From the NCBI GenBank assembly GCA_018819065.1, contig JAHJQL010000053.1, positions 1 to 49,399 of the forward strand: DNA of 49,399 bases. Direction: 5' to 3'. Numbering within the stretch: the first letter of the stretch is position 1; every line of letters begins with the position of its first letter. Both the position numbers and the translations under genes were made by a program. Of this stretch, positions 18,104 to 28,804 are shown piece after piece. The notes under the pieces are model-generated. The model ran no database searches. It saw nothing but the letters and a program-made list of their open reading frames with translations, and had not been told where the DNA came from. The DNA is from Nanobdellota archaeon (lineage in GTDB: Archaea; Nanobdellota; Nanobdellia; Woesearchaeales; GCA-2686295).

Positions 18104-19648
18104 TTATGATTTGTTACGACATGAAGGACTCACTGTTGCATTCCACTCACAAACAGGAGTTAAACCACAAAAGTCTGCCTCGCATTCTTCCTTTTTAACA
18201 TAAAAATTACAAGATTTTATATCTAGATTACACGCTTTGCAGGAGCTTCCAGACCAATCACATTTAGGTTCTAAATCACAAAAATTAGCTTTGCATTCTT
18301 CTTTTTTAGAGTATGAATTACAAGAATTTATGTCTGTATTGCAGACTCTGCAGCCACTTCCAGTCCAACCGCATTCTGGCTCTAAATCACAAGCGTTTTC
18401 TTCACAAGAGTCTTTGCTTGTGTAAGTGTTGCATTTCTGTATCTTTGAACATTTTGAGCAGCAAACACTTCCTGGACCACAGTAGCCTTCTTCATGAATA
18501 CAATCACTGTGAAGAATTACTACTTGGCTTTTGTTTGAAAAGTTTATCTGCGTTCCTTGATTTATATCTCCGGCGATGCAACTCCAGCTTGATGTAGTAA
18601 AAACAAATCCGCAATTCATAAATCTTTTAGCGCATGCTTCACAACTATCCACACAAACACCACCTATATTGACCTGCCACGAATTTGTGCAAGTTCCTGA
18701 TGTTATTGGATCTAAGTTAATATTTGTTCTTTCTATATTTATTTCCTTAGAAAGAGTTGATAGATAGACATAATCAAGTTCCATAAACAGGTTTGCAGCG
18801 TAGTTTTGATTCACACCAATCCCTGCGTTTTCCATGTAACACCTAGTTATTCCTCTATCACCTGTAAGCCTTATAATGCTTGGTTCACATTTTAATTCCT
18901 CGTTTGAAAGCTTTGCAGAAATCCTAACTGTATTCCAATTAGACTTGTTTTGAGCCTGAATACCACAAGAGTTCAAAGAATCTGATGGAATGGGTGTAAG
19001 AATTGTTCCAGAGCCAACATTTTGTATCTCAACAAAGATTATCGGCCTTGCAAACTTTCCTTGCTGCTGACTTTCAAAGTGTAAACGAGTAATTGCAACT
19101 GGAGCTCCTTGACCAGAATAGCTTTTATCTTCTCTCTTACAGACTTTAGTCCTTGCATCAGTGCTTCCATAAGTATCTATGCAGATGTTATCAGCAAGTG
19201 TTGTTTTGTAAGGATAACAAACAGACACTGACAATTTAGTGCTTGGACTTTCTCGCTGACCAGGTATCTTTTTAGACCTTAGAGATGGAAGATAGTGATA
19301 AGCTCGCTCTCCTAACGGATAAACATATGATTTTCCTTGTAAGCTAACATTTTTCCACTGTTCTGGCTGATTTTGGGCTATTTCTAAGTAGAAAGAATCA
19401 AAATACCAGTCTAAAGACGCATTGTATGGTGAACCATTAAGCGAAAACGCGCCTTGATTAGATATAACTATGCTAACTGGAAACTCTGACTGCTCCAAAA
19501 CAAGCTCAGGAGGCGCATCCTTCATAAACTCTATCATCACCCCTTTTGTGCCAGTAAAATAGTTGACAGAATAAGGATCTGGATTGCCACAGGCAGATAA
19601 AAAGAATAATACACCAAATATGACAAAAAATAGTTTTGATTTCATCAA
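18104..19648 (-). CDS. Secreted lipoprotein, family member C, with Cys-rich C-terminal repeats
   Basis: Lipobox FFLSAC; GTKGVMIEFMKDAPPELV; Cys-rich C-terminus. Confidence 0.8.
   Translation of the reverse strand: MMKSKLFFVIFGVLFFLSACGNPDPYSVNYFTGTKGVMIEFMKDAPPELVLEQSEFPVSIVISNQGAFSLNGSPYNASLDWYFDSFYLEIAQNQPEQWKNVSLQGKSYVYPLGERAYHYLPSLRSKKIPGQRESPSTKLSVSVCYPYKTTLADNICIDTYGSTDARTKVCKREDKSYSGQGAPVAITRLHFESQQQGKFARPIIFVEIQNVGSGTILTPIPSDSLNSCGIQAQNKSNWNTVRISAKLSNEELKCEPSIIRLTGDRGITRCYMENAGIGVNQNYAANLFMELDYVYLSTLSKEINIERTNINLDPITSGTCTNSWQVNIGGVCVDSCEACAKRFMNCGFVFTTSSWSCIAGDINQGTQINFSNKSQVVILHSDCIHEEGYCGPGSVCCSKCSKIQKCNTYTSKDSCEENACDLEPECGWTGSGCRVCNTDINSCNSYSKKEECKANFCDLEPKCDWSGSSCKACNLDIKSCNFYVKKEECEADFCGLTPVCEWNATVSPSCRNKS
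18107..18433 (-). repeat. Three tandem ~37-aa Cys-rich repeats at C-terminus of lipoprotein C
   Basis: CNTYTSKDSCEENACDLEPECGWTGSGCRVCNTDINS / CNSYSKKEECKANFCDLEPKCDWSGSSCKACNLDIKS / CNFYVKKEECEADFCGLTPVCEWNATVSPSCRNKS. Confidence 0.93.
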
Positions 19649-21456
19649 GTAACCCTTATGTTCGTTGTTTTTTCAAGTGAGTATTTATAGATTGTTTTTA
19701 CTCCAAAAGTCTTATCAACTTTAATATTTGTTCCTAAAAAAGTTGAAGGATTTTTCATTTCAGACTTACAAGTGATTGTGGTAAATGAATATATCGAACC
19801 ATTTTGAAGTAATGACGACACACGAAAAAAATAGCTGTCTAACTCTCCAGAAGATGAATTCGCCTCTTTTGGAATGCAATCATAGAGTCTCATCTCGTTT
19901 GGAACCATGACTTCCATTACTTCAACATAATCTATCTTTCCCTGAGACCATTGGTTTGAAAGAGTAACTCCAAATGAAGGAAGCCTTTTATCCCCTAAGT
20001 CAACTCCAACAGGTAAAGTCAAAGATTTTATACCAATAGCCGCTGGTCCGTTTGTGTATATCGCTTGAGCATTTGTTGGTATGTTTAATTCTTTATTAAT
20101 ACTCTTTTTCTGAACGTAAAAAGATTTTATCGTTTCTCTATCAACAAAAGTATAAGTTATATCCGCCCAAGTCGGAAATAAGAATTCTGAAACAAAAGCG
20201 ACTTTGTAACTTCCAACAGACAGGTTTTTAAACTCACACTCTAAAGGAACAGACTCATCATAAAAAAGAGTAATCTTTTGAGGATAAATCGTTCCATTGT
20301 ACAACTTTTTGTCTTTAGTTGCATAACAACGGTTGGTGGCATTAATAGCCCCTGTAAAACTCCTACCTATTAATGTGCCCCACACAACTGCAGGTGCGCC
20401 AACACTAAAAGGGTTCTCTGTAGGCTTTAAATCCTCTATATAAACCCCTAAAGGGGCTTCCTCATTATCTTCAACCTGACCAGTAAAGTATTGCATCTGT
20501 GTAGAATTGGAAAACTTTTGACTTATAATAGTTGGAAGCCTAAGAATGGAACTCACCATTTTTTGAGTGTTACCTATAAAGTAATCGTGCAACACAGCAA
20601 GCCCACCCCTTGCATCTTGGCCTGAGAATGAAAGAGCAGGACCAACAGCCATGTTAGATATCAACGCGTAAGTTCCAAGAAGTATAACTATAAAAAAATA
20701 CCTTTTACCCCAAACCTCCACTGCTTGAGAGTCGTTTGGATTCATGAATAAATAAAGAGCCCAAACAGGTGCAGCCAGTAAAACAGCCATTATGTAATCA
20801 GTGTAATAAAACTTCATGATGTAAGGTAAGAAGAAAGCAAACAATGAAACACCAATTATAGTCCATGTTTGAGAAGAAAGACCTGACCTGTAAATTATAA
20901 ATATTGCAAATAATGAAAGTGCAGCATAAATTCCAAGCATCATAGTGAATCTGCCAGGAAGCCTGCTAAAATTATTCACGAGACCATCGAAGAAGTGTAT
21001 GGCGATTGTTATTAGCAAAAACAAGCCCATGTTTGGCTGCGTGGTACTAGAAGAGCCTCCTTTCTCTTTTGCCTTATTATACGCAAACTTAGCAAAAGAA
21101 GTAGCCCACCCACCAACTTTTTTAGCTCCTCGCCCAACTGCTTTTGCACCAGTACCAGCTGCACTGGCCGCTCCTTTTAGCTTTTCCTTCCGAGCAACAC
21201 TCTTATCATCTTTTGCTTTTTGCTTATCGCTTGAAAGAATTTTAGAATGATCAACACCTGCATCTGCAAGCTCTTTTTCTATTGCTGCAATCTCTTTTTT
21301 ATCCTCTGCAATCAAATTTTCATACATAGAAATATTACTAGTATCATCATCTCTTCTTTGAGCTGACTTCAAATTATCTTCATGACGCTTCAAATCATCC
21401 TTAGCAACAACAAGCTCTCCTTTTAGTTTTGCAACTTCAGGAGTTTTGCCTCCCAT
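19645..21456 (-). CDS. Large multi-pass membrane protein with extracellular beta-rich domain
   Basis: N-terminal coiled coil, several TM helices, C-terminal probable extracellular region; overlaps the next gene by 4 nt. Confidence 0.75.
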   Translation of the reverse strand: MGGKTPEVAKLKGELVVAKDDLKRHEDNLKSAQRRDDDTSNISMYENLIAEDKKEIAAIEKELADAGVDHSKILSSDKQKAKDDKSVARKEKLKGAASAAGTGAKAVGRGAKKVGGWATSFAKFAYNKAKEKGGSSSTTQPNMGLFLLITIAIHFFDGLVNNFSRLPGRFTMMLGIYAALSLFAIFIIYRSGLSSQTWTIIGVSLFAFFLPYIMKFYYTDYIMAVLLAAPVWALYLFMNPNDSQAVEVWGKRYFFIVILLGTYALISNMAVGPALSFSGQDARGGLAVLHDYFIGNTQKMVSSILRLPTIISQKFSNSTQMQYFTGQVEDNEEAPLGVYIEDLKPTENPFSVGAPAVVWGTLIGRSFTGAINATNRCYATKDKKLYNGTIYPQKITLFYDESVPLECEFKNLSVGSYKVAFVSEFLFPTWADITYTFVDRETIKSFYVQKKSINKELNIPTNAQAIYTNGPAAIGIKSLTLPVGVDLGDKRLPSFGVTLSNQWSQGKIDYVEVMEVMVPNEMRLYDCIPKEANSSSGELDSYFFRVSSLLQNGSIYSFTTITCKSEMKNPSTFLGTNIKVDKTFGVKTIYKYSLEKTTNIRVT

Positions 21457-21457
21457 C

Positions 21458-22651
21458 CTAATCGTCCTCTACCACAACGACTTTTAACTCTGCAATGTCA
21501 ACTAAGCTTTTTGGTATTAATTCTAAAGAATTAGTTCCAACTTCAACATAATCATCAAGGTTTATAGTGTATTTTAAGTCGGTGGTTCTTATGTATTTTC
21601 TCCTGCCGTTTATCAAGTATTCTAAGTTTTTAGAGTCTTTATTTACAAATCTTAAAGTCATAGTTATGTTGTAGTTGTCCTTGTCAAATTCATCATTTAA
21701 CACGTAATCTTTGTCTTCGTCTAATTCAAAGTAAAACACTGGATAAGTCAAACTTTCTAGCTGTACAACTACTGACACCCTGTCAATAAGGTATGACCCT
21801 TCAGTCACTATGAACTCCAACTCGTTTCGGTCATTGGTAACAAAGTTTTTGTCAAGAGGGAGAATTTTATAAACTCCACAATCAGCAACTCCTGAAAACA
21901 ATATTTCCCCGTTTAAATATATCATCATAGGACCAACAGTGGTAACTTGACAGTTTGGATAGAATTTTAACTTAATAGTCTCTAAATTATTATATTCAAC
22001 ATCTGAGAGGTAGAAGAACTGCTTGTTCTTACTGTTAGAAACATCTAAAACATCCCCTGTTATAACCACGTTTTTTAACTGGTAACGATTAGTTCTCCAA
22101 ATGGCAAATCTCGGGCTTGAGACTTGGAATGAAAGAACATTTCTTTGAGATAAGAATTCTGAAGGCAGACTAATTGGTTGAGGAGTTCCTTTATCAATAA
22201 ATCCGCTGAAAATTTCTTGTCCATTAAGGTACAACTCTAAGTTTCCAGCCGAATCTTCAACATTAAATGTGAGTTGTAAATTGCTTGTTAATTTCTTGTC
22301 TATATCGAATGTGAAATTAAAAAATTTCTTATCACCAACGCCGTTCTTGACAAATATTGAATTTACATTTTTAAGAGTTTTACCCTCACGAGATGCGTAA
22401 ATTCTAAATGAAGGAATGTTGTGCTCTCGATAGTCAAACTTAAGATAATCTAACCTTCCAACGTGTTCTTGCAATAATACTTTACTCAAGCCATTGACTC
22501 CGTTGTCACCATTATTAGTATCATTTTCTCCTAGTAACTCAGCCCTGTTTTGTGGTGGTAAGAATAAAATATAGATGACTATTAACACAGCGATTAGTAT
22601 AACAAATATGGCTGCACCACCAGCACTTGCACCTTGTCCTCTCTTTGACAT
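21458..22651 (-). CDS. Single-TM secreted/anchored protein (start moved to ATG 22651)
   Basis: MSKRGQGASAGGAAIFVILIAVLIVIYILFLPP; TATA-like TTTATATAT near 22673-22684 makes the downstream ATG a better, near-leaderless start than 22708. Confidence 0.75.
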   Translation of the reverse strand: MSKRGQGASAGGAAIFVILIAVLIVIYILFLPPQNRAELLGENDTNNGDNGVNGLSKVLLQEHVGRLDYLKFDYREHNIPSFRIYASREGKTLKNVNSIFVKNGVGDKKFFNFTFDIDKKLTSNLQLTFNVEDSAGNLELYLNGQEIFSGFIDKGTPQPISLPSEFLSQRNVLSFQVSSPRFAIWRTNRYQLKNVVITGDVLDVSNSKNKQFFYLSDVEYNNLETIKLKFYPNCQVTTVGPMMIYLNGEILFSGVADCGVYKILPLDKNFVTNDRNELEFIVTEGSYLIDRVSVVVQLESLTYPVFYFELDEDKDYVLNDEFDKDNYNITMTLRFVNKDSKNLEYLINGRRKYIRTTDLKYTINLDDYVEVGTNSLELIPKSLVDIAELKVVVVEDD

Positions 22652-22736
22652 ATAACAAAATACTATGATAAACATATATAAATTTATTGGTTTTTTTCGA
22701 TAAAACATTTAAACATTCAAAGCATAAATAAAAAAT

Positions 22737-23780
22737 ATGAAATTAATCAAGAAGAACCTTAAAAAACAAGAATTAACAATTAAGCCAGAAACAATAGATG
22801 ACTTGTGGATGCTAAGCCAGATAATTGAGCCCGGTGATTTAATTAAAGGACGGACTGAGAGAAAGATAAAAATTGGTGAAAATACTGATAGAAACATTAA
22901 AGTTGTGAAAAAACAAGTGTTTTTATCAATAATTGCAGAAAAGATAGAGCTTGCTGACAACACTCTTCGAGTTCTTGGAGTCATAAATGACGGACCTGAT
23001 GATATCCCAAGAGGTGAGCACCACAGCTTCAAACTAGAAATAAATGACTTGTTCACAATAGTAAAAGAGAAGTGGCTCAATTACCAACTTGAAAAGATAA
23101 ATGAAGCACAAAAAACAGTTGCGCTTAAAATACTCATCGTCATCTTTGATCGAGAAGAAGCATTCTTTGCAAAGCTTAAAGGAGAGAGTTATAATCTCAT
23201 TGCAACAATCAAAGGGGATGTGCAAAAAAAAGAGTCTAAACACGTTTCAAAAAACGATTTTTACAAGGAGATAAGTAAGAAACTAACAGAGTATGACAAA
23301 ACTGATGAGATAAATCACATAATACTGGCAAGCCCAGGGTTTTGGAAAGAAAACCTTCTAAAAGAACTCTCAGAAGAAATCAAGAAAAAGTCAATAACTG
23401 CAACAGTTTCACAAGCAAGCGAAAGAGCAATTCCTGAACTTATGAAAAGACCTGAGCTGCAGACAATACTTGAGCAAAACAGAGCTACACAAGAGATAAA
23501 GATTATTGATAAACTATTAGAAAACATATCAAAAGACTCTGCTTGCTATGGTGTGGAAGAAACAAAAGAAAAAATAGGTATAGGGGCTGTAAGTGATCTT
23601 CTAATAAGTTTTTCTCTGCTAAGAAAGTCAAGGGAGCAAAACAGTTACAAACTTTTAGAAAGGATGATGATTAATTGTGAGCAAGCCGGAGGAAAGATTC
23701 ACATAATAAGCTCTGAAGAAGCAAAAAAAACCCTTGATTCACTCACAGGCATCGCAGGTATTCTAAGATGGAAGAGTTAA
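22737..23780 (+). CDS. pelA: Pelota, mRNA surveillance/ribosome rescue factor
   Basis: DLWMLSQIIEPGDLIKGRTERKIKIG; C-terminal GGKIHIISSEEAKKTLDSLTGIAGILRW. Confidence 0.95.
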   Translation: MKLIKKNLKKQELTIKPETIDDLWMLSQIIEPGDLIKGRTERKIKIGENTDRNIKVVKKQVFLSIIAEKIELADNTLRVLGVINDGPDDIPRGEHHSFKLEINDLFTIVKEKWLNYQLEKINEAQKTVALKILIVIFDREEAFFAKLKGESYNLIATIKGDVQKKESKHVSKNDFYKEISKKLTEYDKTDEINHIILASPGFWKENLLKELSEEIKKKSITATVSQASERAIPELMKRPELQTILEQNRATQEIKIIDKLLENISKDSACYGVEETKEKIGIGAVSDLLISFSLLRKSREQNSYKLLERMMINCEQAGGKIHIISSEEAKKTLDSLTGIAGILRWKS

Positions 23781-24592
23781 TTAAAGATATACTTTCAAAA
23801 AAAGAGCTTAGAAACCTCGACACATCAATTGTTGAAGAGTTCTTAAAAGATTTCCTTGACAAAAACAGAAAAGTGAAGAGTAATTTAGAAGAGAAGAAAT
23901 TTAACAAAAGAAGTGAAGAATACAAACAAACAGTAAAAGAAGTGAGAAGAAAGTTAAGGGAGATATATGGTGTATTCATAGATGAGAATTATTCAAAAAA
24001 AGAGCATCTCCTTAAAAATCTAAACCGCAGAAACGAAAAAGAAACAGTAGAAAAAATTCTAAAGCTGCACACATCAACAAATGAGAGGCTGCCTTATTAC
24101 AAAGAAGTCTATCAAAAAATCTTTAAAATAACTGGAAGGAAAAAAATTATACTCGACCTTGCGTGCGGGTTAAATCCTTTGAGCTACAAATTTCTAGGAT
24201 ATAAACCAGTGAAGTATATTGCTTCAGATATCTCGTCTGAAGATCTAAAATTCATAGCCCTGTTCTTCAAAAAGATGAAGATAAGCGGAAAAACTATCAA
24301 GATAGACCTTGTAAGAGAACAAGAAAAACTCCAAGGATTAAAAGCTGGTATCTGCTTCATGTTCAAAACCCTTGACTCCCTTGAAACTCAGAAGAAAAAC
24401 ACCTCAAGAACATTAATAGACACTATAAATGCTGAATGGATTGTTATATCATTTCCAAAAACAAGCCTTGGAGGATATAAAACAATCAAAAAATCAAAAA
24501 GGCAATGGTTTGTTAACTTTTTAAAACACAACAACCATAAACACCAATCTTTTGAGACTTTAAATGAATTCTTTTTTGTGATTGAAAAATAA
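23768..24592 (+). CDS. FmrO/RmtB-like 16S rRNA (m7G) methyltransferase family protein
   Basis: HTSTNERLPYYKEVYQKIF, ILDLACGLNPLSYKF, CFMFKTLDSLETQKK, VISFPKTSLGGYKTIKKSKRQWFVNFL match the aminoglycoside-resistance methyltransferase family signature. Confidence 0.85.
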   Translation: MEELIKDILSKKELRNLDTSIVEEFLKDFLDKNRKVKSNLEEKKFNKRSEEYKQTVKEVRRKLREIYGVFIDENYSKKEHLLKNLNRRNEKETVEKILKLHTSTNERLPYYKEVYQKIFKITGRKKIILDLACGLNPLSYKFLGYKPVKYIASDISSEDLKFIALFFKKMKISGKTIKIDLVREQEKLQGLKAGICFMFKTLDSLETQKKNTSRTLIDTINAEWIVISFPKTSLGGYKTIKKSKRQWFVNFLKHNNHKHQSFETLNEFFFVIEK

Positions 24593-24598
24593 GTCTTG

Positions 24599-24624
24599 AA
24601 AAAGAGAAAAAAACGCTCTTTTTT
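24599..24624 (+). terminator. Hairpin plus T-run after the methyltransferase gene
   Basis: AAAAAGAG (24599-24606) / CTCTTTTT (24616-24623), followed by T. Confidence 0.55.
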
Positions 24625-24724: not shown

Positions 24725-25531
24725 ATGATAGTTAAAGAAGAATTTCTGAGCAAGTTGAGGAGATATTTTTCTCTAAATCTGTATGAGGTAAAGATTTGGA
24801 CTGCTCTTCTATCAAGAGGAGTTAGCACGGCAGGAGAACTAAGCGATATTGCAAACGTTCCAAGAAGCAGAAGCTACGACGTATTAGAAAGCCTAGAAAA
24901 AAAAGGTTTTGTTATAATGAAACTTGGAAAACCAATAAAATACTTGGCAGTCCCACCAAAAGAAGTAGTTGAAAGGGTAAAAAAGAATGTTAAAACAGCA
25001 GCAGACGAGCAAATAGCAAAGCTACAGGACCTAAAAAATACTGAGGTAATAAATGAGCTAAATTCTTTACACACTCAAGGAGTGGAGCTTATAGAACCAT
25101 CAGACCTGTCTGGATCTTTGAAAGGAAGACACAACTTATACAACCACTTAGAATTAACCATAAAGAACGCTGAAAAAACAGTCACTATAATGACTACAAC
25201 TCAAGGATTGATGAGAAAAGTAGAAGGATTGATGCCTGTATTTGAAGAAGTAAAGAAAAGAGGAGTGAAGATTAGAATTGCAGCACCATTAACAGAAGAA
25301 TCAAAAGAAGCAGCAAAGATTGTAAGAGGAGTTGCTGAACTTAGACACACAGACAATAGGGCAAGATTCACCATTGTAGATGGGAAAGAAGTTGTATTTA
25401 TGGTTTTGGATGACTCTGAAGTACACCCAACATATGATATTGGAATTTGGATAAACACACCATTCTTTGCATCAGCACTTGAAGATTTATTTGAGCTTGC
25501 TTGGAAAGTTATGAAACCAATAAAAGCTTAA
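24725..25531 (+). CDS. TrmB-family transcriptional regulator
   Basis: wHTH LYEVKIWTALLSRGVSTAGELSDIANVPRSRSYDVLESLEKKGFV plus C-terminal TrmB-type sensor domain. Confidence 0.9.
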   Translation: MIVKEEFLSKLRRYFSLNLYEVKIWTALLSRGVSTAGELSDIANVPRSRSYDVLESLEKKGFVIMKLGKPIKYLAVPPKEVVERVKKNVKTAADEQIAKLQDLKNTEVINELNSLHTQGVELIEPSDLSGSLKGRHNLYNHLELTIKNAEKTVTIMTTTQGLMRKVEGLMPVFEEVKKRGVKIRIAAPLTEESKEAAKIVRGVAELRHTDNRARFTIVDGKEVVFMVLDDSEVHPTYDIGIWINTPFFASALEDLFELAWKVMKPIKA

Positions 25532-25601
25532 TTTTTTTCTTTTTCTAATCATTTTTTTATTCAATAACATTTATATATTAAACTTGTTATCAAAAAAGAA
25601 T

Positions 25602-27134
25602 ATGGAAGTAGAAAAAACCTTGTCAAAACTTCACACTTTTGAGAGAAAAGTCTTGCCAAACATAAAAGATGGAATTTCTCTTTTTGAATTAGCAGAAAAA
25701 TCTATGTTAAAAGAAATTGAAGCCACAAGAGCCATTCAGTGGCTTTATAACAAAAAGGCTGTGGAAATAAAAGAAGAAGTAAAAGAATTAATATCTTTGG
25801 ATGAAAATGGTTTGCTTTATGCAAAAAAAGGTTTACCTGAGAGAAGATTTTTACAAGCAGCCATTAATAACTCTAAAATAAGTGATATAAAAAAAGCAGC
25901 AGAACTAGGTGATGATGAAATAAACATTTGCATTGGTGCATTAAAGAAGAAAGCTGCAATAAATATAGATAAAAAAGATGAACTAATAATCACCTTGACT
26001 GAAAACGGAAAAAAACTGTTGAACAAAGAATTTCTCGAAGAAACATTCTTAAAAAAGAAGTTTCCGCTAGAAACAAAAAGTCTAAGCCCTGAAGAAAAAT
26101 TCTCATTTGACAATTTAATATCTAGAAAAAAGATACTAAAAAAAGACGTGAAGAAAATAAAGAATATATGCTTGACTGCCTTTGGAAGAGACTTATCAAA
26201 GAAATCAAACACTAAAAAAGAGTATATCGATCGATTAACACCAAAGATGCTAAAGGATGGCTCGTGGAAAAACAAAGAATTTAGAGCCTACGACGTAACA
26301 ATAAACGTTCCAAAGATAAACAGGGGAAAGAGACACTTTGTAAGCCAATCAATAGAATCGGCAAAGAGAATATGGCTTGACATGGGTTTTAAAGAAATGA
26401 CTGGCGACATGATACAAACATCTTTTTGGAACTTTGACGCACTATTCACCGCACAAGACCACCCTGTAAGAGACTTGCAGGACACTTTCTACATCCAAAA
26501 ACCAAAGAAAGGAACCCTCCCAGAAAAAGATGTTGTTGACAAAGTAAAAAGAACACATGAGTATGGCTGGACAACGAATAGCAAAGGTTGGAAATACAAT
26601 TGGAATGAGGAAGAATCAAAAAAAATTGTTTTAAGGACACACACAACATGCTTATCAGCCCAGACATTATTCAACCTTAAAAAAGAAGATGTTCCGGGAA
26701 AGTTCTTTGCTCTGGGAAAGTGCTTTAGAAACGAAACTCTTGACTGGTCACACCTCTTTGAATTCAACCAAACAGAAGGAATAGTTGTTGATGAAAATGC
26801 AAACTTTAGACACTTGCTAGGATATCTAAAAGCTTTTTTTAAAAAAATGGGTTATGAAAAAGCCAGGTTTAGACCTGCATACTTTCCATACACTGAATTT
26901 AGCATTGAAATAGATGTACTACACCCCGTTCATAACACTTGGTTTGAACTTGGAGGAGCAGGGATATTTAGACCTGAAGTTGTAAAGCCAATCCTTGGAA
27001 TAGACATCCCAGTCCTTGCATGGGGACCCGGGTTTGATAGGATGATACTTGAATTTTACAAGATAAACGACATAAGAGAATTATATAAGAATGACTTAAA
27101 ACAACTTCGAGAAATAAAGGATTGGACAAGATAA
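25602..27134 (+). CDS. pheS: Phenylalanyl-tRNA synthetase alpha subunit (start at ATG 25602)
   Basis: DVTINVPKINRGKRHFVSQ, FWNFDALFTAQDHPVRDLQDTFY, GKCFRNETLDWSHLFEFNQTEG, FELGGAGIFRPEV. Confidence 0.96.
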   Translation: MEVEKTLSKLHTFERKVLPNIKDGISLFELAEKSMLKEIEATRAIQWLYNKKAVEIKEEVKELISLDENGLLYAKKGLPERRFLQAAINNSKISDIKKAAELGDDEINICIGALKKKAAINIDKKDELIITLTENGKKLLNKEFLEETFLKKKFPLETKSLSPEEKFSFDNLISRKKILKKDVKKIKNICLTAFGRDLSKKSNTKKEYIDRLTPKMLKDGSWKNKEFRAYDVTINVPKINRGKRHFVSQSIESAKRIWLDMGFKEMTGDMIQTSFWNFDALFTAQDHPVRDLQDTFYIQKPKKGTLPEKDVVDKVKRTHEYGWTTNSKGWKYNWNEEESKKIVLRTHTTCLSAQTLFNLKKEDVPGKFFALGKCFRNETLDWSHLFEFNQTEGIVVDENANFRHLLGYLKAFFKKMGYEKARFRPAYFPYTEFSIEIDVLHPVHNTWFELGGAGIFRPEVVKPILGIDIPVLAWGPGFDRMILEFYKINDIRELYKNDLKQLREIKDWTR

Positions 27135-27136
27135 AA

Positions 27137-28804
27137 ATGCCAACAGTAAACTTAAATAAAAAAGTGCTTGAAAGCCTCATTGGAAAGAAACTATCTCTTG
27201 AAGATCTTAAACACAAAATAAGCATGCTTGGAACTGATCTTGATAAAATAGAAGGTGAAGAGATAATTGTTGAGGTTTTTCCAAACAGACCAGATATGCT
27301 TTCAGAGCAAGGATTTGCAAGAGCACTATCAAGTTTTATCGGAGTAAAAACAGGGCTTAAAAAGTACAAAATCAACAAGCCAATGAAAGACTATGAAGTC
27401 AAAATAAAAAAAGATGTTGAGAAAGTCAGACCATACACTGTTTGTGCAATCGTTAAAAAAATGAAATTTGACGACGACAAGATTAAAGAGATAATACAAA
27501 TCCAAGAAAAACTCCACGTAAGCATGGGCAGAAACAGAAAGAAACTAGCCATAGGAATTTATCCTTTGGAAAAGATTAAACTCCCAATAACTTACACTGC
27601 TAAAAAACCTTCTCAAATCAAGTTTAAACCTTTAGAATCTGAAAGGGAAATGACTGCTTTTCAAATATTAAGCCAACACCCCGCCGGAAGAAACTATGGA
27701 TTTTTATTGGAAGGAAAAGAATTATTCCCAATATTCATTGATGCAAACAAGGAGATATTATCAATGCCACCTATAATAAATTCTCATAACACTGGAAAAA
27801 TATCTGAAAAGACAAAAGAGATATTCATCGAGTGTAGTGGATTTGATCTTTTATCTTTAAATCAATGCTTAAACATAATCGTGACAACACTAATTGATAT
27901 GGGTGGAGAAGCGTATCAGATGCAACTATTATATGAAAAATATGGAAAGAAAAAACTGGTATCCCCTAATCTTGAACCTGAAAAATGGAACTTAAATATA
28001 GATTATGTTAATAATATGTTAGGATTAAAACTATCAAAAAAAGAGATAAAAGAATTATTAGAAAAAATGGGTTACGGATATGAAAATGACAAAGTGTTAG
28101 TTCCTGCTTACAGAACAGACATCTTACATCAAATAGACCTTGCAGAAGACATAGCAATTGCTTATGGTTATGAGAATTTTGAGCCAAAAATCCCAAACGT
28201 TTCAACGATAGGACAAGAAGATAAATTAGAGATACTAAAATCAAGAGTCGCGAATATTCTTGCAAATCTTGGACTTATAGAAACAATTTCTTATCACTTA
28301 ACAAGCAAAGAAGAACACAATGAAAAAATGATGTGTGAAGAAGAAGTTGTGGAGATAGAAAAATCCAAAAGCAGCGAGTACACTATGTTAAGAAGCTGGA
28401 TTACTCCAAGCTTAATGCAAGTATTGTCAAAAAACACCAACAGAGAATATCCACAGAACATATTTGAGATAGGAAACACCTTTAAAATAAACAAGTCAAG
28501 AGAAACAAGTGTTGAAGAAAATCAACATTTAGCAATAGCAATTTGTGGACCAGACGCGGATTTTACGAAAGCTAAACAAGTATTTGATTCATTGATGAAT
28601 GCTTTAGATTTAAAGTACGAATCAAAAGAAATAGAACACAATTCATTCATACCAGGAAGAGTTGCAAACATCATTATTAATAAAAAAGATGTTGGTTTAA
28701 TAGGAGAAGTACACCCACAAGTAATCACTAATTTTAAAATAGAAATGCCAATAGCAACTGTTGAATTAAATCTTACAAGGATAAAAGAGGAAATGAAAAA
28801 ATGA
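27137..28804 (+). CDS. pheT: Phenylalanyl-tRNA synthetase beta subunit (start at ATG 27137)
   Basis: MPTVNLNKKVLESLIGK, EVFPNRPDMLSEQGFARAL, PAYRTDILHQIDLAEDIAIAYGYENF. Confidence 0.96.
   Translation: MPTVNLNKKVLESLIGKKLSLEDLKHKISMLGTDLDKIEGEEIIVEVFPNRPDMLSEQGFARALSSFIGVKTGLKKYKINKPMKDYEVKIKKDVEKVRPYTVCAIVKKMKFDDDKIKEIIQIQEKLHVSMGRNRKKLAIGIYPLEKIKLPITYTAKKPSQIKFKPLESEREMTAFQILSQHPAGRNYGFLLEGKELFPIFIDANKEILSMPPIINSHNTGKISEKTKEIFIECSGFDLLSLNQCLNIIVTTLIDMGGEAYQMQLLYEKYGKKKLVSPNLEPEKWNLNIDYVNNMLGLKLSKKEIKELLEKMGYGYENDKVLVPAYRTDILHQIDLAEDIAIAYGYENFEPKIPNVSTIGQEDKLEILKSRVANILANLGLIETISYHLTSKEEHNEKMMCEEEVVEIEKSKSSEYTMLRSWITPSLMQVLSKNTNREYPQNIFEIGNTFKINKSRETSVEENQHLAIAICGPDADFTKAKQVFDSLMNALDLKYESKEIEHNSFIPGRVANIIINKKDVGLIGEVHPQVITNFKIEMPIATVELNLTRIKEEMKK

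What the first reader, a model, noticed from the sequence alone, without database searches (positions are those of the whole stretch)
22737..24592. Pelota translationally coupled to an FmrO/RmtB-like 16S rRNA methyltransferase
Sequence: pelA (ends 23780) overlaps by 13 bp an ORF with HTSTNERLPYYKEVYQKIF, LDLACGLNPLSYKF, FMFKTLDSLETQKK and SFPKTSLGGYKTIKKSKRQWFVNFL. Knowledge: this motif set is the hallmark of the aminoglycoside-resistance 16S rRNA m7G1405 methyltransferases (FmrO/Arm/Rmt family), which act on assembled 30S subunits. Inference: an archaeal member coupled to the ribosome-rescue factor Pelota suggests a decoding-site modification tied to ribosome splitting or quality control, and could represent an ancestral, non-resistance role of the family.
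Basis: partly seen in the sequence, partly recalled or inferred. Interest (0 to 1): 0.82.

Follow-up and report, generated by a model that had tools for sequence, protein, structure and literature searches.

The report
Archaeal ribosome methyltransferase beside Pelota
About half of the genomes sampled from one phylum of tiny archaea carry an ordinary chromosomal gene related to the bacterial enzymes that cause aminoglycoside resistance by methylating the ribosome, and here it overlaps the gene for the ribosome-rescue factor Pelota, which points to a housekeeping role in making or recycling ribosomes rather than to drug resistance.

Summary
pelA (22737-23780) overlaps by 13 bp a 274-codon gene (23768-24592). 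That gene is a true relative of the 16S rRNA m7G1405 methyltransferases: Pfam FmrO 99 bits against a cut-off of 27, best solved relative Sgm, and a confident whole-length fold. It scores below NCBI's cut-off for the resistance enzymes. With its archaeal relatives it forms a branch separate from the six bacterial enzymes sampled, with the cofactor core kept but several other family positions changed. The family is in 191 of 382 genomes of the phylum. The pelA-fmrO pair is conserved in 11 family-level groups of the order, nearly always overlapping or within 30 bp. Elsewhere the gene sits beside other ribosome and translation genes. Best reading: a housekeeping small-subunit rRNA methyltransferase, probably at or near G1405, coupled to 30S maturation or recycling. 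Methylation, its target and any functional tie to Pelota are inferred. Genomes without fmrO keep the pelA-trmB backbone, so hitchhiking in a favoured slot remains a live rival. Podar et al. 2013 noted the family in two nanoarchaea; the breadth, linkage and sequence signature appear new.

The parts
22737..23780 (+). pelA, Pelota/Dom34 ribosome-rescue factor, 347 aa
   Evidence: TIGR00111 E=8e-70, 236 bits, cut-off 178; eRF1_1, eRF1_2 and eRF1_3 domains
23768..24592 (+). fmrO-family 16S rRNA methyltransferase-like gene, 274 aa
   Evidence: PF07091 E=3e-28; NF000466 E=2e-51 below cut-off; Sgm 3lcu E=8e-27; AlphaFold2 model pLDDT 96.8, pTM 0.91; best folds Sgm, RmtC, RmtF, RmtB, ArmA
23768..23780 (+). 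13-bp overlap ATGGAAGAGTTAA: start of fmrO inside the end of pelA (likely translational coupling)
   Evidence: Sequence; of 42 directly adjacent pairs 33 overlap by 7-28 bp and 41 lie within 30 bp; 13 bp is the commonest overlap, 14 pairs
22706..22714 (+). possible TATA-like element (CATTTAAAC), centred about 27 nt before the pelA ATG
   Evidence: read from sequence; inference only
24600..24624 (+). possible hairpin and T-run after fmrO (AAAAGAG...CTCTTTTTT), suggesting the pair ends here
   Evidence: read from sequence; inference only
24725..25531 (+). TrmB-family regulator downstream, the next gene of the conserved backbone
   Evidence: PF01978 E=5e-19; 74-95% identical in relatives' loci
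25584..27134 (+). pheS, Phe-tRNA synthetase alpha chain (backbone)
   Evidence: PF01409 E=2e-81
27122..28804 (+). pheT, Phe-tRNA synthetase beta chain (backbone)
   Evidence: PF17759 E=3e-47, B5 and B3_4 domains
21458..22708 (-). divergent gene of unknown function that flanks pelA throughout the order (backbone)
   Evidence: no convincing Pfam match; relatives divergent to pelA in fmrO-positive and fmrO-negative genomes

Best explanation
The gene encodes a chromosomal housekeeping methyltransferase of the FmrO/Rmt fold. It probably binds the assembled small ribosomal subunit through its N-terminal helical domain and methylates the decoding-site helix 44 of 16S rRNA, most likely N7 of G1405 or a base close by. 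It would act late in 30S maturation or on free 30S after ribosome splitting. Shown by computation: family and fold, conserved cofactor core, phylum-wide chromosomal distribution, the overlapping pelA-fmrO pair in 11 families, ribosome-related neighbours elsewhere, and a G1405 equivalent in all relatives' 16S genes examined. Inferred: methylation itself, the base modified, co-translation with Pelota, and the timing.
For: Family and fold: (the 16 best PDB hits are all G1405 enzymes, aligned over essentially the whole protein, including RmtC bound to the 30S subunit, 8ghu). Core residues D130, G134, N136, P137, D/E154, D180, K200, F229 and E267 are kept almost throughout in 134 archaeal members and shared with nearly all of the bacterial enzymes. 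Usually single copy, present in 191/382 phylum genomes and 111/295 order genomes. pelA directly upstream or one ORF away in 47/140 loci of 11 families; 33 of 42 direct pairs overlap. Other contexts: aIF1A-(Rio1)-PNO1/arCOG04150-fmrO-(Top6B) in families f91 and f103, fibrillarin f41, RNA 3'-cyclase and a divergent ABCE1 in f9, Elp3 f21 (confirmed), f71 and f82 (by clustering), NSUN/RsmF-type m5C methyltransferase f71 and f83, Trm14 f105, Dph5 f101, against 2-3 translation genes among 29 genes sampled from random stretches. G1405 equivalent present in 14 genomes' 16S genes.
Against: Positions common to the bacterial enzymes differ in archaea: H64 to R, P203 (T in RmtC) to D, and the [N/H]Y pair near 243-244 to an R-x-W motif; so the target base or orientation could differ. 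Scores below the NCBI equivalog cut-off. Half of the phylum does without the gene and the 16S decoding-site sequence looks the same in genomes with and without it, so the modification is dispensable. No direct evidence of methylation exists.
Confidence: 0.55

Rival explanations
1. The enzyme is a 30S methyltransferase, but its place behind pelA is a historical accident: fmrO settled in a favoured insertion slot of a conserved backbone (divergent gene - pelA - slot - trmB - pheS - pheT), and the overlap is only compact packing or a way to borrow expression. There is no functional tie to Pelota.
For: fmrO-negative genomes keep the backbone without it (L175, L185) or with other genes in the slot (L188). 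No locus examined outside the order has a pelA link. All pelA-linked cases lie in one order.
Against: Elsewhere the gene is often next to other ribosome factors (PNO1, aIF1A, ABCE1, fibrillarin). pelA-linked and PNO1-linked copies are close kin on the tree (f27 with f91; f64 with f103), suggesting repeated moves between ribosome-related sites (moderate support). 33 of 42 pairs keep an overlap.
Confidence: 0.35
2. Same fold, new target: the archaeal clade methylates another nucleotide or another RNA (another helix 44/45 base, or tRNA).
For: Clade-specific switches R64, D203, R245, each in most of 134 archaeal members and in none of the six bacterial enzymes. Separate branch, 100/99. Several neighbours act on tRNA (Elp3, Trm14, methylthiotransferase).
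Against: Whole-length fold including the N-terminal domain matches the 30S-binding enzymes best. K200, S/T228, F229, E267 and the H-x-S-x-x-E-R segment are common to both groups. The G1405 equivalent is present.
Confidence: 0.25
3. An intrinsic aminoglycoside-protection gene, as in antibiotic producers and in plasmid-borne Rmt/Arm.
For: Homology to the resistance enzymes.
Against: Chromosomal and usually single copy in half of a phylum, in ribosome operons rather than with biosynthesis or mobile genes. Below the resistance-equivalog cut-off. Archaea are in general poorly sensitive to most aminoglycosides (own knowledge).
Confidence: 0.08

Closest known systems
Bacterial 16S rRNA (m7G1405) methyltransferases: Sgm/FmrO of producers, ArmA, RmtA-H
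   Same: Pfam family, whole-length fold with N-terminal helical domain, SAM core, H-x-S-x-x-E-R segment, C-terminal E267
   Different: About 21-29% identical; separate clade; H64>R, P203>D, [N/H]Y>R-x-W; chromosomal ribosome-gene context instead of resistance context; target unproven
Nanoarchaeal homologue noted by Podar et al. 2013 (N. equitans, Nst1; PMC3655853)
   Different: That paper states it is in no other archaea; here it is in about half of 382 sampled genomes of the phylum and operon-linked
KsgA/Dim1 (RsmA) late 30S methyltransferase
   Same: Works-like analogy: late small-subunit rRNA methylation near the decoding site
   Different: Different family and target. Not mutually exclusive here: both 47, fmrO only 144, KsgA only 35, neither 156 genomes; Fisher p=0.17
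Eukaryotic Dom34(Pelota)-Rli1(ABCE1)-Rio1-Pno1 pre-40S test cycle
   Same: The same partner genes neighbour archaeal fmrO in different lineages
   Different: No FmrO-type enzyme is known in that cycle (own knowledge); functional link here is only by gene neighbourhood

Membership tests
FmrO family (Pfam PF07091) | Profile score above the curated cut-off | tested here: met
   99.4 bits against 27
FmrO family (Pfam PF07091) | Rossmann SAM core plus N-terminal helical domain | tested here: met
   AlphaFold2 pLDDT 96.8; Foldseek to 3lcv TM 0.77/0.81 over 281 columns
FmrO family (Pfam PF07091) | Cofactor-side conserved residues | tested here: met
   D130, G134, N136, P137, D154, D180, K200, F229, E267 present in the window protein
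Rmt 16S rRNA (guanine(1405)-N(7))-methyltransferase resistance equivalog (NF000466) | Score above the equivalog cut-off | tested here: not met
   174.7 bits against 250
Rmt 16S rRNA (guanine(1405)-N(7))-methyltransferase resistance equivalog (NF000466) | Positions common to the six bacterial enzymes (H64, P203 in five of six, [N/H]Y near 243-244) | tested here: not met
   R64, D203 and no NY pair; R245 in 123/134 archaeal members
Rmt 16S rRNA (guanine(1405)-N(7))-methyltransferase resistance equivalog (NF000466) | Methylates N7 of G1405 in 30S | not testable with these tools
   Only the presence of the target base was checked in relatives
Rmt 16S rRNA (guanine(1405)-N(7))-methyltransferase resistance equivalog (NF000466) | Confers aminoglycoside resistance | not testable with these tools
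   needs expression and MIC in a laboratory strain
Pelota (TIGR00111) | Score above equivalog cut-off with the three eRF1-type domains | tested here: met
   235.8 bits against 177.65; eRF1_1, _2, _3

The most novel reading that the evidence does not exclude
The FmrO/Rmt fold serves in these archaea as a small-subunit maturation or recycling methyltransferase working with Pelota, ABCE1, Rio1 and PNO1, and this ribosome-biogenesis role, not drug resistance, is the older function from which the clinical resistance enzymes derive.
Probability: 0.2. Interest if true: 0.8.

Novelty: new variant of a known kind. Interest (0 to 1): 0.6.

Why it matters
The m7G1405 enzymes are known as resistance genes, and their origin and any native purpose are open questions. 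A phylum-wide archaeal clade, physically tied to ribosome rescue and small-subunit biogenesis genes, makes a non-resistance role directly testable, including in the cultivable N. equitans. If confirmed it would add an archaeal decoding-site modification and give an evolutionary source or sister group for clinical resistance enzymes.

Tried and rejected
KsgA replacement: because N. equitans lacks KsgA/Dim1 modification (cited in PMC7897474), I asked whether fmrO stands in for it. KsgA is indeed missing from most of the phylum at this sensitivity, but presence of fmrO and of KsgA are not negatively associated (odds ratio 1.45, p=0.17): rejected as a simple swap. A difference in the 16S decoding site between fmrO-positive and fmrO-negative genomes: none seen in the conserved stretch around 1392-1408. 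Single origin of the pelA link: not shown; on the tree pelA-linked genes need 8 changes, at least 4 forced by well-supported branches. Reading the RsmB/F-type neighbour as RsmF (m5C1407): rejected, its best NCBI model is tRNA C49 m5C methyltransferase and it is under all RsmF cut-offs. One genome-contig scan with the single protein gave one relative only; the diverse alignment had no stretch conserved enough for a viral-contig scan. The host's own 16S gene is not in its assembly. The structural paper on Sgm was not held, nor was the N. equitans 16S modification paper, so mutational data on active-site residues were not used.

Full report
Observation. The two ORFs are as described: pelA 22737-23780 (347 aa) and a 274-aa ORF 23768-24592 whose ATG lies in the last codons of pelA, a 13-bp overlap. 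The upstream protein is Pelota (TIGR00111, 236 bits, cut-off 178). The downstream protein matches Pfam FmrO with 99.4 bits (cut-off 27), the generic Rmt model with 174.7 bits (below its equivalog cut-off of 250) and, among solved structures, Sgm, RmtC, RmtF, ArmA and RmtB. A hairpin and T-run follow fmrO and a TATA-like element precedes pelA, so the two genes probably form one short transcript; this is inference from sequence.

Fold and residues. An AlphaFold2 model from 106 archaeal sequences is confident throughout (pLDDT 96.8, pTM 0.91). Its 16 best PDB matches are all G1405 enzymes, matched over essentially the whole protein, including the N-terminal helical domain and RmtC solved on the 30S subunit. 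In an alignment of 134 archaeal members with ArmA, RmtB, RmtC, RmtD2, RmtF and Sgm, the cofactor core and the H-x-S-x-x-E-R segment are common to both. Three spots separate the groups: position 64 is H in all six bacterial enzymes but mostly R in archaea (H in 16 of 134); position 203 is P in five and T in RmtC, but D or E in 130 of 134 archaea; the [N/H]Y pair near 243-244 is replaced by a motif with R245 (123 of 134) and W247. W247 itself is shared with four of the bacterial enzymes. So this is a distinct subfamily, and its target cannot be taken for granted. Which of these positions touch the target base was not determined here.

Distribution. The family is in 111 of 295 genomes of the window's order and 191 of 382 genomes sampled across its phylum, nearly always as one copy; Pelota is in 292 of 295. 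The PF07091 search finds the family in none of 14 well-known control genomes, four of them archaea. G298 is a single contig of 490,885 bp, the size of the N. equitans genome (own knowledge); Podar et al. 2013 (PMC3655853) had reported the homologue there and in Nst1 and in no other archaeon. Organism names of the other genomes are not shown by the tool, so calling the order Woesearchaeales-like is inference.

Neighbourhoods. In 140 analysed loci, pelA is directly upstream on the same strand, or one ORF away, in 47 loci from 11 family-level groups. Of 42 direct pairs, 33 overlap by 7-28 bp, 41 lie within 30 bp, and 13 bp is the commonest overlap. trmB, then pheS-pheT, usually follow. In order genomes without fmrO the backbone is the same minus fmrO (L175, L185) or with other genes in the slot (L188). 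Outside the pelA-linked group the gene often sits in other ribosome or translation contexts: aIF1A-PNO1(arCOG04150)-fmrO-topoisomerase VI in f103, with Rio1-PNO1-fmrO or aIF1A-PNO1-fmrO in f91; fibrillarin in f41; RNA 3'-cyclase and a divergent ABCE1 in f9; Elp3 in f21 and, by sequence clustering, f71 and f82; methylthiotransferase f26; an aspartyl/asparaginyl/lysyl-type tRNA synthetase f60; NSUN-type m5C methyltransferase f71 and f83; Trm14 f105; Dph5 f101. Other families have unrelated neighbours (DNA polymerase D, a flippase, TatD, peptidase M16, Thy1). By my own, unblinded classification about 12 of some 26-28 non-pelA families have a translation-related close co-directional neighbour, against 2-3 of 29 genes sampled from random stretches of ten of these genomes. 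This is a small sample and the ORF calls were mechanical, so it is support rather than proof.

Phylogeny. The six bacterial enzymes fall on one side of a fully supported branch (100/99) and all archaeal ones on the other. pelA-linked genes are scattered (8 changes, at least 4 forced). Two pelA-linked genes group with PNO1-linked families (f27 with f91, 85/96; f64 with f103, 97/80), which suggests the gene has moved between these two ribosome-related sites. The root and the direction of transfer between bacteria and archaea are not resolved, so 'ancestral, non-resistance role' is untested.

Mechanism. Most likely the enzyme binds assembled 30S, as its bacterial relatives do (own knowledge and the 8ghu entry), and methylates helix 44 at or near the G1405 equivalent, which is present in every 16S gene examined (14 genomes, with and without fmrO). 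In eukaryotes Pelota and ABCE1 split ribosomes and have been proposed to act with Rio1 and Pno1 in a final test cycle of new 40S subunits (own knowledge; a recent paper tying Rio1 and Dom34 to 18S rRNA quality control is PMC11045238, listed but not read). The same four genes are neighbours of archaeal fmrO in different lineages, which is why a late 30S maturation or recycling step is my preferred reading. Shown: family, fold, distribution, linkage. Inferred: activity, base, timing, and any contact with Pelota.

Verdict. A real and largely undescribed variant of a known family, with a testable housekeeping hypothesis. The Pelota tie is a strong gene-order fact with an unproven meaning.

Noticed in passing
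382 genomes of the phylum; own genome G000: KsgA/Dim1, found in all 14 control genomes, gives a match at E<=1e-10 in only 93 of 382 genomes of this phylum; the window's own genome shows only a partial PF00398 match (E=1e-9). Wide loss or strong divergence of this near-universal late 30S methyltransferase.
   Followed up: partly
window 24725-25531 and relatives L003-L015: The TrmB-like regulator downstream is 74-95% identical between genera and family-level groups while its neighbours PelA and FmrO are only about 30-67% identical; unusually strong constraint for a regulator.
   Followed up: no
window 18104-22708, minus strand: Three genes of unknown function (416, 603 and 514 aa; no convincing Pfam match) divergent from pelA; relatives of the first lie in the same place across the order in genomes with and without fmrO.
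   Followed up: partly
L172-L191, between pelA and trmB: The slot between pelA and trmB is variable: empty in L175 and L185, one gene in L188, several genes in others; a possible site for gene gain.
   Followed up: partly
L015 (G028): fmrO and trmB kept but pelA replaced upstream by a two-gene set whose second protein looks like an AbiEii-type nucleotidyltransferase toxin (by eye, not tested).
   Followed up: no
families f94, f95, f101, f113 (e.g. L170:5671-6150): A small membrane-like protein of about 155 aa without Pfam match sits directly upstream of fmrO in four families, often with diphthine synthase just downstream.
   Followed up: partly
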